Shown piece by piece: positions 5,871 to 16,949 of a DNA stretch of 63,075 nt; the first letter of the stretch is position 1; every line of letters begins with the position of its first letter. The DNA is from Acidobacteriota bacterium (GTDB taxonomy: Bacteria > Acidobacteriota > Terriglobia > Terriglobales > SCQP01). A program made the translations under genes and the position numbers. Location: the NCBI GenBank assembly GCA_004299485.1, contig SCQP01000002.1, forward strand, positions 296,966 through 360,040, given 5' to 3'. The notes under the pieces were generated by a model that worked only from the letters and a program-made list of their open reading frames with translations, had not been told where the DNA came from and made no database searches.

Positions 5871-7103
5871 GTGAGCTTTCCCGGCTTCGTCGCCTCCCGC
5901 TACCTCCAGCCGCGCCGCCGCCGCGGCGTACTCTCCATCGTGGCGGCCATCGCCATCCTCGGTTTTGCCGTCGGCGTCGGAGCCCTCATTCTCGCTCTTT
6001 CCGTGACCAATGGCTTCCGCGATGCGATTCAGACCGAACTCGTCGGCGCCACCGCCCAGGTCAATCTGCTCCCCCGCATGCCCACCGCCATCCCCGACTA
6101 TCCCTCCTTGCTGGACAAACTTGCGAAACTTCCGCATGTGGCTGCCGTCGCCCCGGTCATCTACTCGCCCGGCCTGATCAGCTACGGCGACCAGAACCAT
6201 GAGGTCGTGCTCAAGGGCATCATTCCCAGTCAGGAGCAAAAAATCGGTACGCTGCTGACGCATCTCACCGCCGGCAGTCTTACCCCTTTGGAACAGAATC
6301 CCAAAGGCTACAGTATCGTCCTCGGTCAGGCCCTGGCCAACCAGCTCGGTGTCGCTCCCGGCAGTTGGGTCCAGCTCTACGTGCCCAACGCCGTGCTCAC
6401 CCCCATGGGTATGACCGGCCGCCGCACCGAATTCCAGGTCGCCGGTATTTTCAATTCCGGCTATCTCGATTTCGATAGTGCTTGGGCGTTTACCTCGTTC
6501 CAGGCCGCCCAGGCCCTCCATCCGCAAAACCAGAGCAACTGGGCCAGCGACATTGAGTTTCACCTCGACGACATCTACCAGGCGCCGCAGGTCGCCCAGG
6601 CCGCCGAAGCCATCGCCGGCCCCGCCTATACCACCACCACCTGGATCTCGGAAAACAAGCCTATCTTTCAGGCCCTCCAGCTCGAGCGCCTCGGTACTAT
6701 CATCGTCATCGGTCTGGTGGTGCTCGTCGCCGCGCTCAACGTGTTCATCATGCTCACCATGCTGGTTATGGAAAAGCGCAAGGAAATCGCCGTGCTGCTC
6801 TCCCTTGGCGCGCGCCGCCGCCAAATCCGCCAGATTTTTGTCTACCATGGCGTATGGATCGCCGCCCTCGGCACGGCTGCCGGTCTGCTCGTGGCCTACC
6901 CCCTCGCCTGGGCTGCCAATCGCTTCCAGTGGATTCATGTCTCTTCAGAGGTATATCCCGTGAGCTACATCCCCTTCCACGCCCATGCCCTTGATGGCGT
7001 GATCGTGGCCGTCCTCGCGCTCGTCATCGCCTGGATGGCCACCCTCTATCCCTCGCAGCGCGCCCTCGCCGTTTTGCCCGCCGAAACCCTGCGCTATGAA
7101 TAA
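5871..7103 (+). CDS. Lipoprotein-releasing system permease (LolC/LolE family)
   Basis: This inner-membrane permease of 410 aa has the FtsX/MacB architecture. The first transmembrane helix (about residues 24-46) is followed by a large periplasmic MacB_PCD-type domain. Three C-terminal helices (about 280-305, 320-350, 375-400) follow. The N-terminal FVASRYLQPRRRRGVLSIVAAIAILGFAVGV is the classic LolC/E start. It would extract lipoproteins from the inner membrane together with the divergent LolD-like ATPase. Only one permease is present, so a homodimer (LolF-like arrangement) is possible. The GTG start has TAAGCT 6 nt upstream, and the gene overlaps psd by 8 bp. Confidence 0.88.
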   Translation: MSFPGFVASRYLQPRRRRGVLSIVAAIAILGFAVGVGALILALSVTNGFRDAIQTELVGATAQVNLLPRMPTAIPDYPSLLDKLAKLPHVAAVAPVIYSPGLISYGDQNHEVVLKGIIPSQEQKIGTLLTHLTAGSLTPLEQNPKGYSIVLGQALANQLGVAPGSWVQLYVPNAVLTPMGMTGRRTEFQVAGIFNSGYLDFDSAWAFTSFQAAQALHPQNQSNWASDIEFHLDDIYQAPQVAQAAEAIAGPAYTTTTWISENKPIFQALQLERLGTIIVIGLVVLVAALNVFIMLTMLVMEKRKEIAVLLSLGARRRQIRQIFVYHGVWIAALGTAAGLLVAYPLAWAANRFQWIHVSSEVYPVSYIPFHAHALDGVIVAVLALVIAWMATLYPSQRALAVLPAETLRYE

Positions 7104-7953
7104 GGACGGCGGCTGGCGACTCTGGCTGTCGTGTCAGGCCGGGCGCGTCGCGCGAACACCCGCTTCGCGCTGGCTCATTCCCGGCTTCGCGCATCACTAT
7201 CGCATCCCCCGCGACGAAGCCGTCATCCCCGTCGGCGGCTTCGCCAGCCTGCAGCAGTTCTTCTGCCGGTCGCTGCGCCCGGAACTGCGCCCCATTGCTT
7301 CCGATCCCGGCGTCCTGGTCTCACCCGCCGATGGCCTGATCACTGCCGGTGGCTCGATCGTCGCTGGCGAGCTGCTCCAGGCCAAGGGCCACACCTACTC
7401 TATTGGCGAGCTGCTCGGCGACGCCGCCCGTGCCGAAGCCTTCCTCGGCGGTTGCTACGCCACTATCTATCTCGCCCCCGCAGACTACCACCGCGTCCAC
7501 GCCCCCGCCGCTGGCGATCTCGTAGAGGCCCGCTATATTCCCGGTGCGCGCTGGTCGGTCAGCCCCCGTACCGCCGAGCGCGTGCCCCGTCTGTTCGCCC
7601 AAAACGAGCGCCTCATCAGTTATCTCGACACCGCCCTCGGCCCTGTTGCGGTTGTCATGGTCGGCGCTTGCTTGGTGGGCGCCATCCGCGTCAATTACGA
7701 CCCGCTCTGGAACGCCGGTCCCGGTCCCCACGTCGCCGACCGCCGCCGCTACGACCCCGCTCTCGCCTTCACCCGCGGCCAGGAACTCGCCCGCTTCGAA
7801 TTCGGCTCAACCGTCATCTTGTTGGCCGCTCCCGAACTCGGCGCCTCCCTCTGCGCCTCCTCCGGCACCCGCGTCCTCATGGGCGCCCCCCTCATGCGTA
7901 CCGTGAACCCCGCGGAAATCAGCCCTCCAGCGGCACCCGAATGTTTGCCTTGA
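7096..7953 (+). CDS. psd: Phosphatidylserine decarboxylase proenzyme
   Basis: The enzyme converts phosphatidylserine to phosphatidylethanolamine at the inner membrane. The self-cleavage motif FGST is at residues 236-239, with Ser238 predicted to become the pyruvoyl group. Other conserved elements are SPADG (Asp79) and YHRVHAP (His132/His135) for the catalytic relay. The length of 285 aa is normal for the long bacterial form. The start overlaps the end of the permease gene by 8 bp, which suggests translational coupling. No pssA lies adjacent. The next gene belongs to a cassette with different codon usage. Confidence 0.92.
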   Translation: MNKDGGWRLWLSCQAGRVARTPASRWLIPGFAHHYRIPRDEAVIPVGGFASLQQFFCRSLRPELRPIASDPGVLVSPADGLITAGGSIVAGELLQAKGHTYSIGELLGDAARAEAFLGGCYATIYLAPADYHRVHAPAAGDLVEARYIPGARWSVSPRTAERVPRLFAQNERLISYLDTALGPVAVVMVGACLVGAIRVNYDPLWNAGPGPHVADRRRYDPALAFTRGQELARFEFGSTVILLAAPELGASLCASSGTRVLMGAPLMRTVNPAEISPPAAPECLP

Positions 7954-8000: not shown

Positions 8001-8006
8001 GAGGGG
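8001..8006 (+). promoter_or_regulatory. Ribosome-binding site deciding the start of the Cys-rich peptide
   Basis: GAGGGG directly abuts ATG 8007 and is 6 nt before ATG 8013. The spacing favours initiation at 8013, the second of three in-frame ATGs (8007, 8013, 8019). A clear Shine-Dalgarno is uncommon in this window, where many genes look leaderless. Confidence 0.6.
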
Positions 8007-8012
8007 ATGAAA

Positions 8013-8219
8013 ATGAAAATGGTTAAACGCGTCGTGACTATGGCGATCTATATCAGTGCAGTAGCGGCAATCGCTGTTGGACTGATGCAACCCGCATTTG
8101 CTCAAGGGTCGTGCTGCCGGACTTGTGCTTACGGATGCACGTTGTACGGGGTCGGCGGCACGAACTTCGACGTCTGCTTGTGCGCCGTAACCGGCGAGTC
8201 CTGTAAGCCAGTGGAGTGA
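8013..8219 (+). CDS. Small exported cysteine-rich peptide
   Basis: This 68-aa precursor has a basic N-terminus, a hydrophobic core and an AFA signal peptidase site at residue 30. The mature peptide of about 38 aa carries seven cysteines at 34, 35, 38, 42, 55, 57 and 64 (CC-x2-C-x3-C ... C-x-C ... C). I do not recognise the family. The odd number of cysteines leaves one free for a mixed disulfide, a metal ion or a dimer. It is the first gene of a tight cluster that ends with a CPDC thioredoxin-like protein, so disulfide formation or reduction in the periplasm is a reasonable guess. Codon use in the cluster is less GCC/CTC-biased than in neighbouring genes. Confidence 0.7.
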   Translation: MKMVKRVVTMAIYISAVAAIAVGLMQPAFAQGSCCRTCAYGCTLYGVGGTNFDVCLCAVTGESCKPVE

Positions 8220-8225
8220 ATCACC

Positions 8226-9692
8226 ATGGATTGGGCCGGGTACCGGTGGCTCTGTCTCGCCGTTGTGGGGGCTGTCAGCGCTATGTGTCTGGGCGCGCGG
8301 GCGCAGGCAGCGACCCCGGCGGGGCAAATATTTGGTGAGGCACGAGCAGCGGCGGCGAACTTGCCGCCGTTGCTCGCTGCGCGCGAGCTCGGGATGATCG
8401 ACCAGGACGAGATGGTCGCGATCCCAAAGCAGGGGCTGAAAGATTTCAAAGCACTTTATCTGAAGGTTAGCCAGTGGCAGACCGGAGGTAGTTCAACGGC
8501 TGACAAGGCGCACGTGGATATCCAGGCGTTGGAGGAAACCAACGCAATCGAGGCGTACGCAAACGCCTCGCACTTCGAGGAGGCCTTGGCCTGGCTGCAG
8601 CAGCTTCACGAGCCCAGCTCAGCGGCGCAGACCAACGGCATGGTCTACAGCCACGTCGTCATCCAGATGCTTGTGCACAAGCAGTTCCCCCAGGTGCAGG
8701 CCGCGTTGCGGCAGTGCGCCAGCGAGGGGGCCGGTTACCCGTACGAGGGTGCGGCTACGGCCCTGGATGCGGATCAACTGCCCGAGCTGCAGCGCATGAG
8801 CATCGCTAGCCAAGGCCTTGCGGCGCCCGCTGGCCCTGAGGATGTTCACCCGGCGGCAATTTTTTTCGGGGCGGTGGTGCATACGTTTCCGGCCATGGCC
8901 GGACAGGTGGAAAGCGCGATGTTCGCGCTACTGGCCAGCCTGAAAGCTGACTCTGCAGCGCACCGCGAACGCTCGGTTGTCGATGCGCGGGGCGGATCGA
9001 TGCTACTTTCGGTGCTCGACCAGTTTGATCCCGAGCGGGCACAGGCCGCGAGAATCCAGTACCCCGCCGCCGCGGGCGCGAATTTTGGCGGTGGCGCGGT
9101 TTACCAGACTTCGCCCGCAGGTCAGGTCACCGGCATGAGGCTTGGACAGTCGCTGCCATCGCGGCTCTCCCAATTGGCCGCGAACGATCCCGAGGGTGCA
9201 ATCGCGGGCGCAACGAGCCTGGCAGATAGGGACTCGCGTTTTGCAGCACTTGCCGGCATTGCGCAGCAGCTCGCCAAGTCGCGTCCGCAGATGGCGGAGC
9301 AGTCGGCCAGTCAGGCGTTCGGTCTGCTCGACAAGGATGTTGCCGCGGCGGAGACCGGATACACAGCGAACCTGGCCGATGTTTTCCACGACCTGGGTGA
9401 CGTTGAGAAGGCGAACCAAGTCGCGGAGGTGGCCCTTAGTGCCGCAGACGCCCATGCGCAACAAGCCGAGGAGCAATTCGACCTCTCGACGCCGGAGGCG
9501 GTCGCCAAGGTGACGCACGATCTCCTGTTGCCGGCAGTGGCGCTGTCATATCCGTACGATGACCTCGCTCCCAACTTCCCATCGCTCGCGCTTCAACACG
9601 CGCGTGGCTGTGAGTGCAAGGTAGCAAAACCGCTGATCCTGGCGAAAATTGCCGAAGGAATGACGCCGGCAGGTGCAAAGGCCGTGTACTAA
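8226..9692 (+). CDS. Exported protein of unknown function (helical repeats)
   Basis: This 488-aa protein has an N-terminal signal peptide ending near ARAQAA (about residue 28). The rest is rich in alanine helices resembling TPR or HEAT-type repeats (for example about 100-125, 315-355 and 375-415). Apart from one CEC motif near the C-terminus (GCECKVAKP), cysteine is rare. The gene begins 6 bp after the Cys-rich peptide gene, and its TAA is followed immediately by the next ATG (TAAATG), so the cluster is almost certainly one transcript. I do not recognise a family. A periplasmic scaffold or chaperone for the peptide is inference only. Confidence 0.7.
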   Translation: MDWAGYRWLCLAVVGAVSAMCLGARAQAATPAGQIFGEARAAAANLPPLLAARELGMIDQDEMVAIPKQGLKDFKALYLKVSQWQTGGSSTADKAHVDIQALEETNAIEAYANASHFEEALAWLQQLHEPSSAAQTNGMVYSHVVIQMLVHKQFPQVQAALRQCASEGAGYPYEGAATALDADQLPELQRMSIASQGLAAPAGPEDVHPAAIFFGAVVHTFPAMAGQVESAMFALLASLKADSAAHRERSVVDARGGSMLLSVLDQFDPERAQAARIQYPAAAGANFGGGAVYQTSPAGQVTGMRLGQSLPSRLSQLAANDPEGAIAGATSLADRDSRFAALAGIAQQLAKSRPQMAEQSASQAFGLLDKDVAAAETGYTANLADVFHDLGDVEKANQVAEVALSAADAHAQQAEEQFDLSTPEAVAKVTHDLLLPAVALSYPYDDLAPNFPSLALQHARGCECKVAKPLILAKIAEGMTPAGAKAVY

Positions 9693-10265
9693 ATGGGACG
9701 CGAGAAATCCCTCTCGGTTGCCGCTGAGGTGCTCGGTATAGTCGTTCTCGTAATCGCCGGGACACGCACGGGCAAGCTCCTGCGGACCTATACAGTCAAA
9801 ACGTCCGAAATCAGGGCGAGCCTGGTGGGCGGCTTGGCAAAGCCAGGGATTGAGCTCGGCAACCTCGACGGCATTGCCCTCAACGGGCGATACGTGGATC
9901 CCGCGTCTGACGATCGAACTCGAATTGTCTTCTTTTTGCTCCGAGATAAGAACGCGGCCTCGGACCTCCGGTTCTGGAACAGGGTCACCGTCGCCTCCGG
10001 CGGCAACCCCTGGCTGCAGTTTCGAGGATTCTGCGAAGCGGTCGCGTGCAAGACGGCAGCTCGCAGTCAGAGGGACATGTTGGTCTTCCAAGCCGGGGCC
10101 GTTCGTACGGTGGAGGCCGTCCTGCAGGCTGACGGGCAGGGCAGTGCAGTGCTGGTTACCGCAGCGGACCGGCGCGAAGTGGGCGACATAGCGTGGCGCA
10201 ATGTCCGCAGCCCTGCGCGCGTCGAAACCGAGATCCTCGCCGCGATAAATGGGCCGATACCATGA
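9693..10265 (+). CDS. Membrane-anchored protein, possible redoxin-like fold
   Basis: This 190-aa protein has one N-terminal membrane segment (about 7-23) and a soluble domain outside the membrane. The segment LNGRYVDP...TRIVFFLLRDKNAASDLRFW resembles the first strand and helix of TlpA/redoxin domains, but no CxxC is present at the expected site. Two cysteines occur later (Cys114 and Cys119 in FCEAVACK). Start and stop are fused to the neighbours: the ATG directly follows the previous TAA, and the last codons overlap the next ATG (ATGA). A catalytically altered thioredoxin-like partner of the downstream CPDC protein is the simplest reading. Confidence 0.6.
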   Translation: MGREKSLSVAAEVLGIVVLVIAGTRTGKLLRTYTVKTSEIRASLVGGLAKPGIELGNLDGIALNGRYVDPASDDRTRIVFFLLRDKNAASDLRFWNRVTVASGGNPWLQFRGFCEAVACKTAARSQRDMLVFQAGAVRTVEAVLQADGQGSAVLVTAADRREVGDIAWRNVRSPARVETEILAAINGPIP

Positions 10266-10786
10266 GGCTCATCCGCGTAATCCTCCTGGGGCTGGTGGTG
10301 ATTGACCTTTCCCTTGTGCTCGCCCTTATGCGCACCCGCTCCGCGTACCATTTCGAAAGCGGACCCTTTCGTTCCGGTGTTCGTGCGATAACATTGCCGT
10401 CAGGGTTTCTCGCTGACGGCACCCTCTATCGTCCGCCCTCTGACCGGCGCTGTGCGCTACTTCAGTACACAAGCACTCTATGCCCCGACTGCGACCTCAA
10501 CTGGATCGTCGCCTCGCGGCTTTCGGACCAGCTTCAATCTCTCGGCTGCGAAGCGATCCGTTTGGCGCCATCGCCGGAGCAACTGCCCCTACGCCAGGCG
10601 CAGCTCCACGAAATCGAAATCGGCTGGGTTCGGCCCAGCTGGCTCGAGAAGCTTCCGAGGCTGGAGATGGAGCCGACCGCGATCGCGCTCGGGCCGGATG
10701 GAAGGATCGTCTGGTATACCGTCGGAGAACTTTCGCGAGGGGACGTGCAGGCGGCTATCGCGAAAGTCCGGCATGCCCTGCATTGA
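10262..10786 (+). CDS. Membrane-anchored thioredoxin-like protein (CPDC)
   Basis: This 174-aa protein has an N-terminal signal anchor (about 4-22) and then a periplasmic domain. That domain carries CPDC at residues 74-77 after a beta strand (ALLQYTSTLCPDC), the typical place of the redox-active CxxC in thioredoxin folds. A C-terminal strand GPDGRIVWYTVGEL fits the cis-Pro/beta-hairpin end of TlpA-like proteins. The ATG overlaps the previous stop by 4 bp (ATGA). An earlier in-frame start (10193) would lie inside the upstream gene and lacks a membrane segment, so 10262 is chosen. It probably oxidises or reduces the cysteines of the small peptide encoded at 8013. Confidence 0.7.
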   Translation: MRLIRVILLGLVVIDLSLVLALMRTRSAYHFESGPFRSGVRAITLPSGFLADGTLYRPPSDRRCALLQYTSTLCPDCDLNWIVASRLSDQLQSLGCEAIRLAPSPEQLPLRQAQLHEIEIGWVRPSWLEKLPRLEMEPTAIALGPDGRIVWYTVGELSRGDVQAAIAKVRHALH

Positions 10787-10839: not shown

Positions 10840-12603
10840 TCATGCAGGCCGAGCGCTTCGGGAGCCGCGTAGTCCGGCAAGGAACACCGCCGTGCCGCGC
10901 GTATTGAGCACCTGTGCGGCCTCCAGCCAGCCCCGCCGCGCGGTGGCGATCCCGTACCGGATATTGTCCAGGTGCTTCGGGTGATGCGCGTCCGTCGAAA
11001 TTACCACCCCCACGCCCACTTGTCCGCAGCGCCGCGCCTGCGTCGCATTCAGGTCCAGCCGTTCCGGCGAGGCGTTGATCTCCATCGCCACACCCGCCTC
11101 GTGGCAGGCCGCCAGCACCCGCTCGAAGTCATACGCATAGGCCTCGCGCCGCAACAGCAGCCGGCCACTCGGATGCCCCAGAATGTCGAGGTTCGGGTTG
11201 GCCACCGCCCGCAGCAGCCGCGCTGTCGTTTCCGCCTCTGTCTGGTCAAAGCGCGAATGAATGCTGCCAATCACCACGTCAAGTTGCGCCAGCACGCTGT
11301 CGTCCAGGTCCAGCCGCCCGTCGGCCAGAATGTCTACCTCGACGCCCGCAAAAATCCGGAATCCTGGGTGCGCTCTCTGAAACGCCCGCTCTGCCGCACG
11401 AATCCGCTGCATGTGCTCCAGCATTCGTGCCTCGTTTAACCCATTCGCCATTGCCAGCGCCTGCGAATGGTCGGTAATCGCGATGTATTCATATCCGCGT
11501 TCTACCGCCGCCGCCGCCATTTCTTCAATTGACGCCTTCCCGTCCGTCGCGGTGGTGTGCATATGCACGTCGCCGCGGATGGCGCCGGCCGTAATCAGCC
11601 GCGGCAGCGTGTGTGCCGCCGCCGCTTCAATTTCCCCGGAGTCTTCGCGCAGTTCCGGCGCGATCCAATCCAGTCCCAGCGCTGCGTAAAGGTCTTTCTC
11701 TTCTGCACCGGCCAGCACCACGCCATCGCTTTCGCGCATGAGTCCGTACTCGTTCAGCTTCGCCCCCTGTTGCTGGGCCAGACCGCGCAGGTGAATGTTG
11801 TGCTGCTGCGAGCCGGTGAAATACTGCAGCGCCGCGCCGAAGCTGGCCAGCGGCAGCAGCCGCAGATCCATCTGCAACCCTCCGTGCAGCCGCACCGAAA
11901 CCTTGTTCTCGCCCTGCGCCAGCACCTCTTCCCGCCGCGGCGTTTCCAGAAACCGCTCAATCACCGCGCTACCCGCTTCCGGCAGCGTCCGGCCGGCGAC
12001 CAACAGATCCAGATCGCCAATCGTATCCCGTCCCCGCCGGTAAGAGCCCGCCACCGCAAACCGCTCCACGCCCGGCGCCACTTCCAGCCGCGGCTGCACC
12101 AGCGCCAGTGCCTCGTCGATCTGGTCACGTCGAAAGCGGCCGCTGAGCTGGCGCAGCCGCGCGATGCCCCGCAGGATCTTTTCCTCCGCTTTTTCGCCCA
12201 TCCGCGGCAGCAGCCGCAGCTTGCCTTCGCGTCCGAGCGCTTCCACTTCGTTGAGCGTTCCCGCTCCGTAGGTCTGCCAAATCAGCGCTGCCGTCTTCGG
12301 CCCCAGTCCAGAGACCTGCAGCAGTTCCAGCATTCCCGGCCGGAACTTCTCCAGCAGTTCCCGGTGCAGGTTCAACTCCCCTCTCGCCACCAGCTCGGCG
12401 ATGTGCCCCGCCATAGTCTTGCCGATTCCGGGCAGTTCGAGCAGCCGTTTGGGCTCGGCGCACAGCGAGGCCACCGGCGCTGGACAGGTCTCAATCGCGT
12501 CCGCCGCCTTGCGGTAGCTCCGGATGCGAAAGCCGTCCTCGCCCGCCACTTCCAGCAGATCGGCCGTCTCCCGCAGCGTGCGCGCAATCTCGCGGTTCTC
12601 CAT
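10840..12603 (-). CDS. polX: DNA polymerase/3'-5' exonuclease PolX
   Basis: This is a family-X repair polymerase fused to a PHP phosphoesterase. The N-terminal helix-hairpin-helix region spans about 1-150 (LPGIGKTMAGHI at 57-68). The nucleotidyltransferase motif GSYRRGRDTIGDLDLL at 186-201 supplies metal ligands Asp197 and Asp199. The C-terminal PHP domain starts near residue 342 with GDVHMHTTATDG and contains AITDHS, FAGVEVDI and STDAHHP. The 587-aa length matches the bacterial PolX family. It acts in base-excision gap filling. It is divergent from acpP across a 69-bp spacer that holds an 18-bp palindrome. Confidence 0.94.
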   Translation of the reverse strand: MENREIARTLRETADLLEVAGEDGFRIRSYRKAADAIETCPAPVASLCAEPKRLLELPGIGKTMAGHIAELVARGELNLHRELLEKFRPGMLELLQVSGLGPKTAALIWQTYGAGTLNEVEALGREGKLRLLPRMGEKAEEKILRGIARLRQLSGRFRRDQIDEALALVQPRLEVAPGVERFAVAGSYRRGRDTIGDLDLLVAGRTLPEAGSAVIERFLETPRREEVLAQGENKVSVRLHGGLQMDLRLLPLASFGAALQYFTGSQQHNIHLRGLAQQQGAKLNEYGLMRESDGVVLAGAEEKDLYAALGLDWIAPELREDSGEIEAAAAHTLPRLITAGAIRGDVHMHTTATDGKASIEEMAAAAVERGYEYIAITDHSQALAMANGLNEARMLEHMQRIRAAERAFQRAHPGFRIFAGVEVDILADGRLDLDDSVLAQLDVVIGSIHSRFDQTEAETTARLLRAVANPNLDILGHPSGRLLLRREAYAYDFERVLAACHEAGVAMEINASPERLDLNATQARRCGQVGVGVVISTDAHHPKHLDNIRYGIATARRGWLEAAQVLNTRGTAVFLAGLRGSRSARPA

Positions 12604-14936: not shown

Positions 14937-15920
14937 CTAATGGACTAAGTGGTGTTTTGCTAGGTAGTTCAGATTCCTCATCGCTGACGCCCGCCCGCGC
15001 GCATTTGCGGGACTATCCGGCAGGAGCGCATAGTAAACTTCCATATTCCACTTGGCCTGGTCGTAATGGTGGGTGTAGAAATACGATTCGCCAATCAGAA
15101 AATACGCGGCCGCCGGTGACGGCGGCGCATCCTGCAGCGCTTTTTCCGCCAGGGTCCGAGCCGCCAGGTACCGGTGCAGGCGTATGTCCAGGAGTGCCAT
15201 GTCCAGATACGTCGACCAATACACCGGTGGCAGCCGCAGCGCCTCCTCCAGATGTTCTTGCGCTGTTGCCGTATCACCGATAATGAATTCCAGCCGCCCC
15301 AGCATCGTCAGCGCTGCCGTATTGCGCGGATTGCGTGCCAGCGCCATGTCCAGATCCGATCGCGCCGCCGCGTAGTTCTTCCGGCTCAAGCTGATGCTGG
15401 CCCGGTCACTGTAAGCACGGCTCCAGGCCGGTGCTTCCTGGATCGCCTGATTGAGGAGTTTCCACGCCCCCCCCTCATCCGATTTTTCCAGCGCCTTTTC
15501 CGCCTTTACCAGTGTCGTTTGCGCCTTGATCGGCGCTTGGAGGTCGTTAACCGAAACCGTCGCCGGTGCGATTCCCAGGTCATGCCGGTGCATCCCGGGG
15601 TTCCGCTTCATGCGCAGCACCAAACCTTCCGTGGAACTCGCCGGTGCCGGGAACTCTCGTATACCCTCTGTCGTGGCCACCGTCAGGGTGTAGGATCCGG
15701 CCTGCGGCGCCCCAAACGAAAATCGCCCGCTTGCATCCGTAAGCTCGCTCAGGATGACCGCCGGCGAGGCGAGTGTCAGCCGGATGGCTGCCGCCTTCAC
15801 GTCCGCCCCATGCGAGTTTTCCACCCTCCCCTGGACTGTGTAGACTGGCGCCTGCCATCCCGCGGCCGTGAAGGGCAGCCCCAGGAACACCGCGGCGGCC
15901 AGCAGCTCGCGCAATGCCAT
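14937..15920 (-). CDS. Exported TPR protein with carboxypeptidase-regulatory-like domain
   Basis: A signal peptide (about 1-22) is followed by a beta-sandwich of the carboxypeptidase regulatory type (about 27-100, VQGRVENSHGADVKAAAIRL ... TDASGRFSFGAPQAGSYTL). A linker (VSVNDLQAPIKAQTTL) and about five TPR helices pairs (about 140-320) follow. The architecture is common in Acidobacteriota secretomes and suggests periplasmic or surface protein interactions. The upstream gene 15951-16949 encodes a paralog with the same domain order, so the pair arose by tandem duplication. The spacing of 30 bp suggests one operon. Confidence 0.8.
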   Translation of the reverse strand: MALRELLAAAVFLGLPFTAAGWQAPVYTVQGRVENSHGADVKAAAIRLTLASPAVILSELTDASGRFSFGAPQAGSYTLTVATTEGIREFPAPASSTEGLVLRMKRNPGMHRHDLGIAPATVSVNDLQAPIKAQTTLVKAEKALEKSDEGGAWKLLNQAIQEAPAWSRAYSDRASISLSRKNYAAARSDLDMALARNPRNTAALTMLGRLEFIIGDTATAQEHLEEALRLPPVYWSTYLDMALLDIRLHRYLAARTLAEKALQDAPPSPAAAYFLIGESYFYTHHYDQAKWNMEVYYALLPDSPANARGRASAMRNLNYLAKHHLVH

Positions 15921-15950
15921 ATTGCCTTCAGTGTACGTCCACTATGGCGG

Positions 15951-16949
15951 CTAGGGCTGTGGCGTCAGGCGGGCCAGCAGCTTCAGATCGTGCTCTGCGC
16001 TCGCGCGAGAGGCTGCGAAATCCGCCGTCTGGGGCGCCTGCTTTAAGAAGAGCTTGAATTGCGCCACCGCCGGCCGGTACTTGTGCAAAAAATAGTCCGC
16101 AATGCCATCAATATAGTGAACCCCTGCCGGTGGGGCCGGCTGGCACGCCATCGCTCGCGTCGCCAGTTCGTGCGCTTCGCCAAATCGATGCTCCAGCACG
16201 TCCAGCCGTGCCATTTCCAGATACGCAGGCCATTGTACCGGCGGCAGGTGCAGCGCTCGCTGCAGGTAGGTACGCGCCAGTCGGTATTGATTCGTAGTCG
16301 TGTATAACTTTCCCATTTCCGTCAATGCCAGGCCGTTGTTGGGATCGTGAGCGACAGCCGTAGCAAAATCCGATTGCGCCGAGACGTAGTTATGGTTCGT
16401 GAAGCTCAGTACTCCACGCAGCAAATACGCCCGCCCCCAGCTTGGCGCAATTCGGATCGCTTCGTTTACTAGCTTCCAGGCTTTCGAAAAATCGGATTTA
16501 TCGGCGGCTTTGGTCGCGCCTACTAGCTTCGATTTGGCCTTGGATGGCGCCTCCAGATCATTCATCGATACCGTCGGTTGCACCGCGCGGCCCACGCGCG
16601 GCGCTGCCCCTTCACGCATCCGCAGTACCATGTCCTGTTGTAGCGGGCCGGCCAGCATGAACTCCTCCGTGCCCTGCGCGGTGACCACGGTTGCCCGGTA
16701 CGGCTCCTGGCCGTTGATCTCGACGCTAAACATTCCCATTCCATCCGTCACCGCCGACTGCATGGCGCCCCCATTCAGCGAGCCGATTTGAACCAGCGCT
16801 GCTGGAATGGGTCGGCCAAAAGCGTCAACAACGGTGCCTTGCACCTGAGAGGTTGTCCGCGGGCCATTATCCTGGCGTCCAAACGCGGACAGCACGCACG
16901 TGAGCGAAAGTGTCACCACCAAAGCAGATCGAAACCACATACTGCGCAC
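15951..16949 (-). CDS. Exported TPR protein with carboxypeptidase-regulatory-like domain (paralog)
   Basis: The order is signal peptide (about 1-25), a regulatory-type beta-sandwich (VQGTVVDAFGRPIPAALVQIG and DGMGMFSVEING, about 35-105), a shared linker VSMNDLEAPSKAKSKLV, then TPR helices to the end. The linker VS-x-NDL-x-AP-x-KA is common to both copies and marks them as recent paralogs. The function is unknown. A role in holding envelope complexes together would fit. This copy is first in the transcription direction and probably carries the promoter for both. Confidence 0.8.
   Translation of the reverse strand: MRSMWFRSALVVTLSLTCVLSAFGRQDNGPRTTSQVQGTVVDAFGRPIPAALVQIGSLNGGAMQSAVTDGMGMFSVEINGQEPYRATVVTAQGTEEFMLAGPLQQDMVLRMREGAAPRVGRAVQPTVSMNDLEAPSKAKSKLVGATKAADKSDFSKAWKLVNEAIRIAPSWGRAYLLRGVLSFTNHNYVSAQSDFATAVAHDPNNGLALTEMGKLYTTTNQYRLARTYLQRALHLPPVQWPAYLEMARLDVLEHRFGEAHELATRAMACQPAPPAGVHYIDGIADYFLHKYRPAVAQFKLFLKQAPQTADFAASRASAEHDLKLLARLTPQP

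What the first reader, a model, noticed from the sequence alone, without database searches (positions are those of the whole stretch)
8001..10786. Unrecognised exported Cys-rich peptide plus thioredoxin-like cassette
Four genes are fused by overlaps or gaps of 6 bp or less: a peptide with seven cysteines in a mature part of about 38 aa, an exported 488-aa repeat protein, a membrane-anchored redoxin-like protein without CxxC, and a membrane-anchored CPDC protein. The organisation suggests a dedicated disulfide or metal chemistry acting on the peptide outside the cytoplasm. Codon use differs from the neighbours, indicating transfer. I know of no named family for the peptide.
Basis: partly seen in the sequence, partly recalled or inferred. 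Interest (0 to 1): 0.75.

Follow-up and report, generated by a model that had tools for sequence, protein, structure and literature searches.

The report
Bacterial disulfide-rich peptides with private thioredoxins
A soil-type bacterium carries a small inserted gene set that makes a tiny secreted cysteine-rich peptide together with its own thioredoxin-like enzymes, and the same pairing turns up across the whole Acidobacteriota phylum, where many of the peptides look like the knotted miniproteins known from spiders, cone snails and plants.

Summary
Four genes at 8007-10786 are packed head to tail: a Sec-exported peptide with 7 Cys, an exported 488-aa helical-repeat protein, a membrane-anchored thioredoxin-fold protein without CxxC, and a membrane-anchored CPDC thioredoxin-like protein. 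They sit exactly between psd and polX, which touch in three same-genus genomes, so the set is an insertion. The core (Cys-rich peptide, CxxC-less partner, CxxC protein) recurs in five other loci of the order. The CxxC-less partner keeps an invariant cysteine pair elsewhere (C-x4-C, C-x5-C in one member), and its CxxC protein carries two extra invariant Cys. Phylum-wide, a simpler two-gene form is common: 42 of 67 CxxC-protein loci have an exported Cys-rich peptide gene within 700 bp on the same strand, against 0 of 20 ordinary TlpA loci. Peptides mostly have an even Cys count; 17 of 26 six-Cys peptides fit inhibitor-cystine-knot spacing (0.8 expected), and profile and fold comparisons both point to knottins. 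The window peptide is a divergent member. No family, structure or paper I could search names this. Best reading: a dedicated periplasmic disulfide-forming or shuffling module for secreted miniproteins. What the peptides do is unknown.

The parts
8007..8219 (+). Exported Cys-rich peptide gene (68-70 aa; mature about 38 aa, 7 Cys: CC-x2-C-x3-C-x13-C-x-C-x6-C); likely start 8013
   Evidence: positional equivalents in five other cassettes share C-x-C and a signal peptide
8226..9692 (+). Exported 488-aa helical-repeat (weakly TPR-like) protein; accessory, copy of an Acidobacteriota family found elsewhere in the genome
   Evidence: absent from the other class-1 cassettes
9693..10265 (+). Membrane-anchored thioredoxin-fold protein without CxxC, invariant C114-x4-C119 pair
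10262..10786 (+). Membrane-anchored ResA/TlpA-like thioredoxin with CPDC, plus invariant C64 and C96
7954..10839 (.). Inserted segment: lies between psd (7096-7953, +) and polX (10840-12603, -), which are adjacent in G009, G017 and G023

Best explanation
This is a peptide-maturation module. The peptide is exported by Sec (its signal sequence is plain in the sequence). In the periplasm its cysteines are joined into disulfides (inferred from even Cys counts and knottin-like spacing in relatives). A membrane-anchored thioredoxin-like protein with CPDC, encoded in the same operon, makes, corrects or reshuffles those bonds (inferred from genetic linkage and fold). In this three-protein (class 1) form, a second thioredoxin-fold protein, whose cysteine pair has moved from CxxC to C-x4-C, and an extra Cys pair on the CPDC protein act as a thiol relay between the two enzymes (inferred from perfect co-occurrence of these cysteines). 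The folded miniprotein then acts outside the inner membrane. The 488-aa repeat protein, and in other loci an ADOP permease or other exported proteins, are interchangeable accessory parts, perhaps for binding or release of the peptide (speculative).
For: Same three-gene order in L046-L050. CxxC-protein loci: 42/67 with an adjacent same-strand exported Cys-rich peptide, versus 0/20 ordinary TlpA loci, 2/67 on the opposite strand, and 14 per 380 kb further away (Fisher p = 1.6e-7). Even Cys number in 41 of 50 peptides. 17/26 distinct six-Cys peptides fit ICK spacing against 0.8 expected. Profile A8 matches solved knottins (Evasin-3 E 0.015, squash trypsin inhibitors, conotoxins). AlphaFold core pLDDT 84-86 with a beta-hairpin; structural neighbours mostly ICK peptides. 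CxxC protein matches ResA. CxxC-less protein is related to it by profile (87.5%, E 3.6e-6) and has a thioredoxin-type model. Extra Cys pair in 7/7 class-1 and 0/17 class-2 proteins.
Against: No direct evidence that the enzymes touch the peptide. TlpA/ResA relatives are usually reductases. The genome has DsbD_TM proteins but no detectable DsbB or VKOR, so the source of oxidising power is unclear. The window peptide has 7 Cys and a 13-residue loop, outside strict ICK spacing, and was not itself modelled. Related peptides exist without a neighbouring partner. 25 of 67 CxxC loci had no peptide by my strict rule, some because of the rule itself (the window and L048 are missed by it). The ICK matches are individually weak (E 0.015-0.7 for the knottins; Z at most 3.2). 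The extra-Cys correlation follows phylogeny.
Confidence: 0.55

Rival explanations
1. Reductive partner: the CPDC protein, fed by DsbD/CcdA, keeps the peptide's cysteines reduced so that it can bind a metal (copper, zinc) or haem; the peptide is a metallophore or metal carrier.
For: The closest enzyme families (ResA, TlpA) are reductases (family knowledge; profile match); the genome has two DsbD_TM proteins and no DsbB or VKOR; TlpA/Sco copper proteins appear among the weak fold matches of the CxxC-less partner; the window peptide has an odd Cys count.
Against: Even Cys counts in 41/50 peptides and knottin-like spacing; few His or Met residues in the peptides (one search list); no metal transporter noticed next to the loci inspected.
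Confidence: 0.2
2. The peptides are antagonistic agents (bacteriocin-like or defensin-like) with a dedicated folding enzyme, comparable in logic to pediocin with PedC or sublancin with BdbB; accessory genes provide release or self-protection.
For: Small, exported, fast-diverging, tandem paralogue arrays of up to five; patchy distribution, insertion in one lineage and remnants in relatives; ADOP permease overlapping the operon in L050 and L088.
Against: Sec signal peptide, not a double-glycine leader; no recognisable immunity gene; orphan copies; no activity data. This reading is about purpose and is compatible with the best explanation.
Confidence: 0.3
3. The linkage is incidental: Cys-rich exported small proteins are common in these genomes and the CxxC protein serves general envelope folding.
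For: Orphan peptides exist; one CxxC protein could serve several peptides in trans.
Against: 0/20 TlpA loci, 2/67 on the opposite strand, low density away from the gene; six class-1 copies with the same order; operon spacing of 4-60 bp in most class-2 loci.
Confidence: 0.08

Closest known systems
MauD/MauE with the methylamine dehydrogenase small subunit
   Same: Membrane-anchored CPxC thioredoxin-like protein genetically linked to a small exported protein with many disulfides, and needed for its maturation (family knowledge); the L089 CxxC protein matches MauD TIGR02661 weakly.
   Different: 32 bits against a cut-off of 189; no MauE or dehydrogenase at the loci; substrate is a 35-60-residue peptide, not an enzyme subunit.
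ResA / TlpA / StoA thiol-disulfide oxidoreductases
   Same: Fold, membrane anchor, CxxC.
   Different: Below curated cut-offs; linked to peptides rather than cytochrome or spore assembly; class 1 has two extra invariant Cys and a CxxC-less partner.
Inhibitor cystine knot peptides (knottins: squash trypsin inhibitors, spider and cone-snail toxins, Evasin-3)
   Same: C-x3-C-x5-C-x3-C-x-C-x9-C spacing, predicted beta-hairpin, profile and fold matches.
   Different: Bacterial, with a linked thioredoxin; connectivity not determined; window peptide outside strict spacing.
Bacteriocin accessory thiol enzymes (PedC with pediocin, BdbB with sublancin)
   Same: Dedicated thiol-disulfide enzyme encoded beside a small secreted disulfide peptide (family knowledge).
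   Different: Sec signal instead of double-glycine leader, no dedicated exporter or immunity gene found, unrelated peptides, different phylum.
NVEALA peptides of Bacteroidota with neighbouring TlpA-like proteins
   Same: Small exported Cys-containing peptide near TlpA-like proteins (recalled, a lead only; no paper found).
   Different: No NVEALA Pfam match in any of the 19 peptides scanned.

Membership tests
MauD (TIGR02661) | Score above the curated cut-off of 188.6 bits | tested here: not met
   Best member tested 31.9 bits; window CPDC protein no match
ResA/TlpA-like thioredoxin superfamily | Thioredoxin fold with CxxC and N-terminal membrane anchor | tested here: met
   Profile match to ResA E 4e-4; Pfam AhpC-TSA, Redoxin and Thioredoxin_2 in 15, 13 and 10 of 24 members; CPDC and hydrophobic N-terminus. 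Subfamily ResA cut-off not reached (38 of 170 bits)
Thioredoxin fold (third protein) | Thioredoxin-type topology | tested here: met
   Profile-profile 87.5%; modelled topology and nearly all structural neighbours are thioredoxin-superfamily, best Z 7.1, but pLDDT only 62
Inhibitor cystine knot, class-2 peptides | C-x3-7-C-x3-8-C-x0-7-C-x1-4-C-x4-13-C spacing | tested here: met
   17 of 26 distinct six-Cys peptides, 0.8 expected
Inhibitor cystine knot, window peptide | Same spacing | tested here: not met
   Loops 0-2-3-13-1-6 with 7 Cys; only the C-x-C-x6-C end agrees
Inhibitor cystine knot | Disulfide connectivity C1-C4, C2-C5, C3-C6 | not testable with these tools
   No coordinates or chemistry available; fold matches mostly ICK
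NVEALA | Match to the Pfam NVEALA family | tested here: not met
   Not among matches of 19 peptides at E up to 1
Class II bacteriocin with accessory thiol enzyme | Double-glycine leader and immunity gene | tested here: not met
   Peptides carry Sec-type signal peptides; no such gene recognised at the loci inspected
Anti-phage defence systems | PADLOC model match | tested here: not met
   No match above chance

The most novel reading that the evidence does not exclude
Acidobacteriota encode a large, unnamed repertoire of gene-encoded cystine-knot and other disulfide-rich miniproteins, with their own membrane-bound thioredoxin-like folding enzymes: a bacterial counterpart of the venom-peptide and PDI arrangement, used as secreted weapons or signals in soil.
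Probability: 0.35. Interest if true: 0.85.

Novelty: new variant of a known kind. Interest (0 to 1): 0.62.

Why it matters
If true, one of the most abundant soil phyla has a hidden class of secreted disulfide-rich miniproteins together with the enzymes that fold them. That would extend knottin-like peptides into bacteria on a phylum scale, provide a genetic handle (the linked thioredoxin) for finding such peptides, and offer natural folding enzymes for disulfide-rich peptides. The class-1 form, with a thioredoxin fold whose cysteine pair has moved, would be an unusual redox relay.

Tried and rejected
Pfam, NCBIfam, PHROGs and PADLOC gave no family for the four window proteins. A genome-contig scan with the 488-aa protein found nothing; viral contigs and plasmids gave no relative of the CPDC protein. 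A first A6 alignment was too diverse to search. Direct search with the peptide alone gave only chance-level matches. I considered that the 488-aa protein is part of the core, because exported proteins of about 500 aa also follow the peptide in L093 and L104: those two are related to each other but not to the window protein. Plant-defensin (AtDEF-like, E 7e-4) and squash (E 0.02) Pfam matches are below cut-off and treated as Cys-pattern hints only. A sigma-70 promoter and terminator scan found nothing. Paper searches found nothing on this pairing, but most subscription papers are not held. EGF-like and metallothionein readings of the Cys pattern were considered and dropped in favour of the knottin spacing.

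Full report
What is there. The window lies in an Acidobacteriota genome of 3.3 Mb (two named relatives of the wider system are an Acidobacteriaceae and a Terriglobia genome). At 8007-10786 four genes run head to tail with gaps of 6 and 0 bp and a 4-bp overlap. They encode a Sec-exported peptide with seven Cys in a 38-residue mature part, an exported 488-aa protein, a 190-aa membrane-anchored protein without CxxC, and a 174-aa membrane-anchored CPDC protein.

It is an insertion. In three genomes of the same genus (G009, G017, G023) lolE, psd and polX follow one another directly; in L168 psd and the C-terminal end of polX are convergent and practically touching. In the window the four genes sit exactly between psd and polX. 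GC3 (0.65-0.73 against 0.68-0.81) and codon fit are lower than in most neighbours, though two local genes at 14940-16949 are similar. G009 keeps a remnant elsewhere: a 37% identical CxxC protein with a shortened partner and no peptide. G023 has a fragment.

The core recurs. A search with the CPDC protein found distant relatives. Their neighbourhoods show the same order in five loci: Cys-rich exported peptide, CxxC-less protein, CxxC protein (L046, L047, L048, L049, L050). The 488-aa gene is not among them; its relatives are a separate family beside a peptidyl-prolyl isomerase gene in this and related genomes. In this class the CxxC protein has four invariant Cys (C64, C74, C77, C96) and the CxxC-less partner has an invariant pair (C114, C119 in the window; C-x4-C, C-x5-C in one). 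All seven class-1 proteins have the extra pair and none of 17 class-2 proteins does.

A wider class. A profile of the CxxC proteins over 397 genomes of the order and 396 of the phylum, with 80 loci fetched, shows a simpler two-gene form: a membrane-anchored CxxC protein followed or preceded, usually by 4-170 bp, by one to five exported Cys-rich peptide genes. By a fixed rule, 42 of 67 such loci have a peptide on the same strand within 700 bp, against 2 of 67 on the opposite strand and 0 of 20 ordinary TlpA loci (p = 1.6e-7). The rule misses the window itself and L048, so it is conservative. The genome of the window has a second, class-2 cassette at G000:C18:37468 (L094).

What the peptides look like. 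Of 50 linked peptides, 41 have an even number of Cys (paralogues make the p value optimistic). Among 26 distinct six-Cys peptides 17 fit the inhibitor-cystine-knot spacing; random placement of the inner Cys predicts 0.8. A profile of the class-2 peptides has among its best PDB matches Evasin-3 (E 0.015), squash trypsin inhibitors, MCoCC-1 and conotoxins. A template-free model of the L094 mature peptide reaches pLDDT 84-86 in the Cys core, with a beta-hairpin; its structural neighbours are mostly cystine-knot peptides, though with small Z (3.2 at best), as is to be expected for 30 residues. Each item is weak alone; together they make a knottin-type fold likely for this group. Other linked peptides have different patterns (repeated C-x3-C in L105, L112, L140; eight-Cys types in L160, L161), so the constant part is the enzyme, not the peptide fold. 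The window peptide keeps only the C-x-C-x6-C end and has seven Cys.

What the enzymes look like. The CxxC protein matches ResA in the PDB and Pfam AhpC-TSA/Redoxin/Thioredoxin. It matches MauD only at 32 bits against a cut-off of 189. The CxxC-less partner has no Pfam family, is related to the CxxC protein by profile comparison, and models with moderate confidence as a thioredoxin fold (pLDDT 62), with C114 at the end of a core strand, on the side where the usual active site lies (inference). The genome has two DsbD_TM proteins but no detectable DsbB or VKOR.

Mechanism. Shown: export signals, linkage, folds, conserved Cys, insertion. Inferred: the peptide's Cys form disulfides; the CPDC protein makes or shuffles them; the CxxC-less partner and the extra Cys pair form a relay. 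Unknown: the oxidant, the function of the peptide, and the role of the 488-aa protein. ADOP permeases overlap the operon in L050 (4 bp) and L088, which may point to peptide handling, but ADOP genes are abundant in these bacteria (own knowledge).

Limits. Orphan knottin-type peptides exist at four loci without a neighbouring CxxC gene, always in genomes that also have the pair. Signal peptides were called by a simple hydrophobicity rule. Other phyla were not surveyed. Novelty rests on libraries and open papers only.

Noticed in passing
G000:C18:37468-38295 (L094:3969-4796): A second cassette in the same genome: CEFC thioredoxin-like protein followed 4 bp later by a six-Cys knottin-spaced exported peptide, then a TIGR03436 VWA protein.
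   Followed up: yes
L201:3479-3958, L202:3698-3907, L203:3195-3575, L204:3476-4025: Orphan knottin-type peptide genes without an adjacent thioredoxin partner; in L201, L203 and L204 at a conserved place near what look like xseA and glmM genes.
   Followed up: partly
L089, L090, L092 downstream of the CxxC gene: Tandem arrays of four to five diverged peptide paralogues behind one CxxC gene.
   Followed up: partly
L050:7154-9640, L088:4429-6873: ADOP-family (MacB-like) permease genes overlapping the end of the cassette.
   Followed up: partly
L105, L112, L140, L101: Linked peptides with repeated C-x3-C motifs, suggesting a helical-hairpin disulfide fold rather than a knottin.
   Followed up: no
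window 7096-7953: The phosphatidylserine decarboxylase gene was found only in the window's own genus among 14 genomes of the family (E cut-off 1e-20).
   Followed up: no
window 14937-16949: Two neighbouring similar exported proteins with repeat-like tails, probably a tandem duplication.
   Followed up: no
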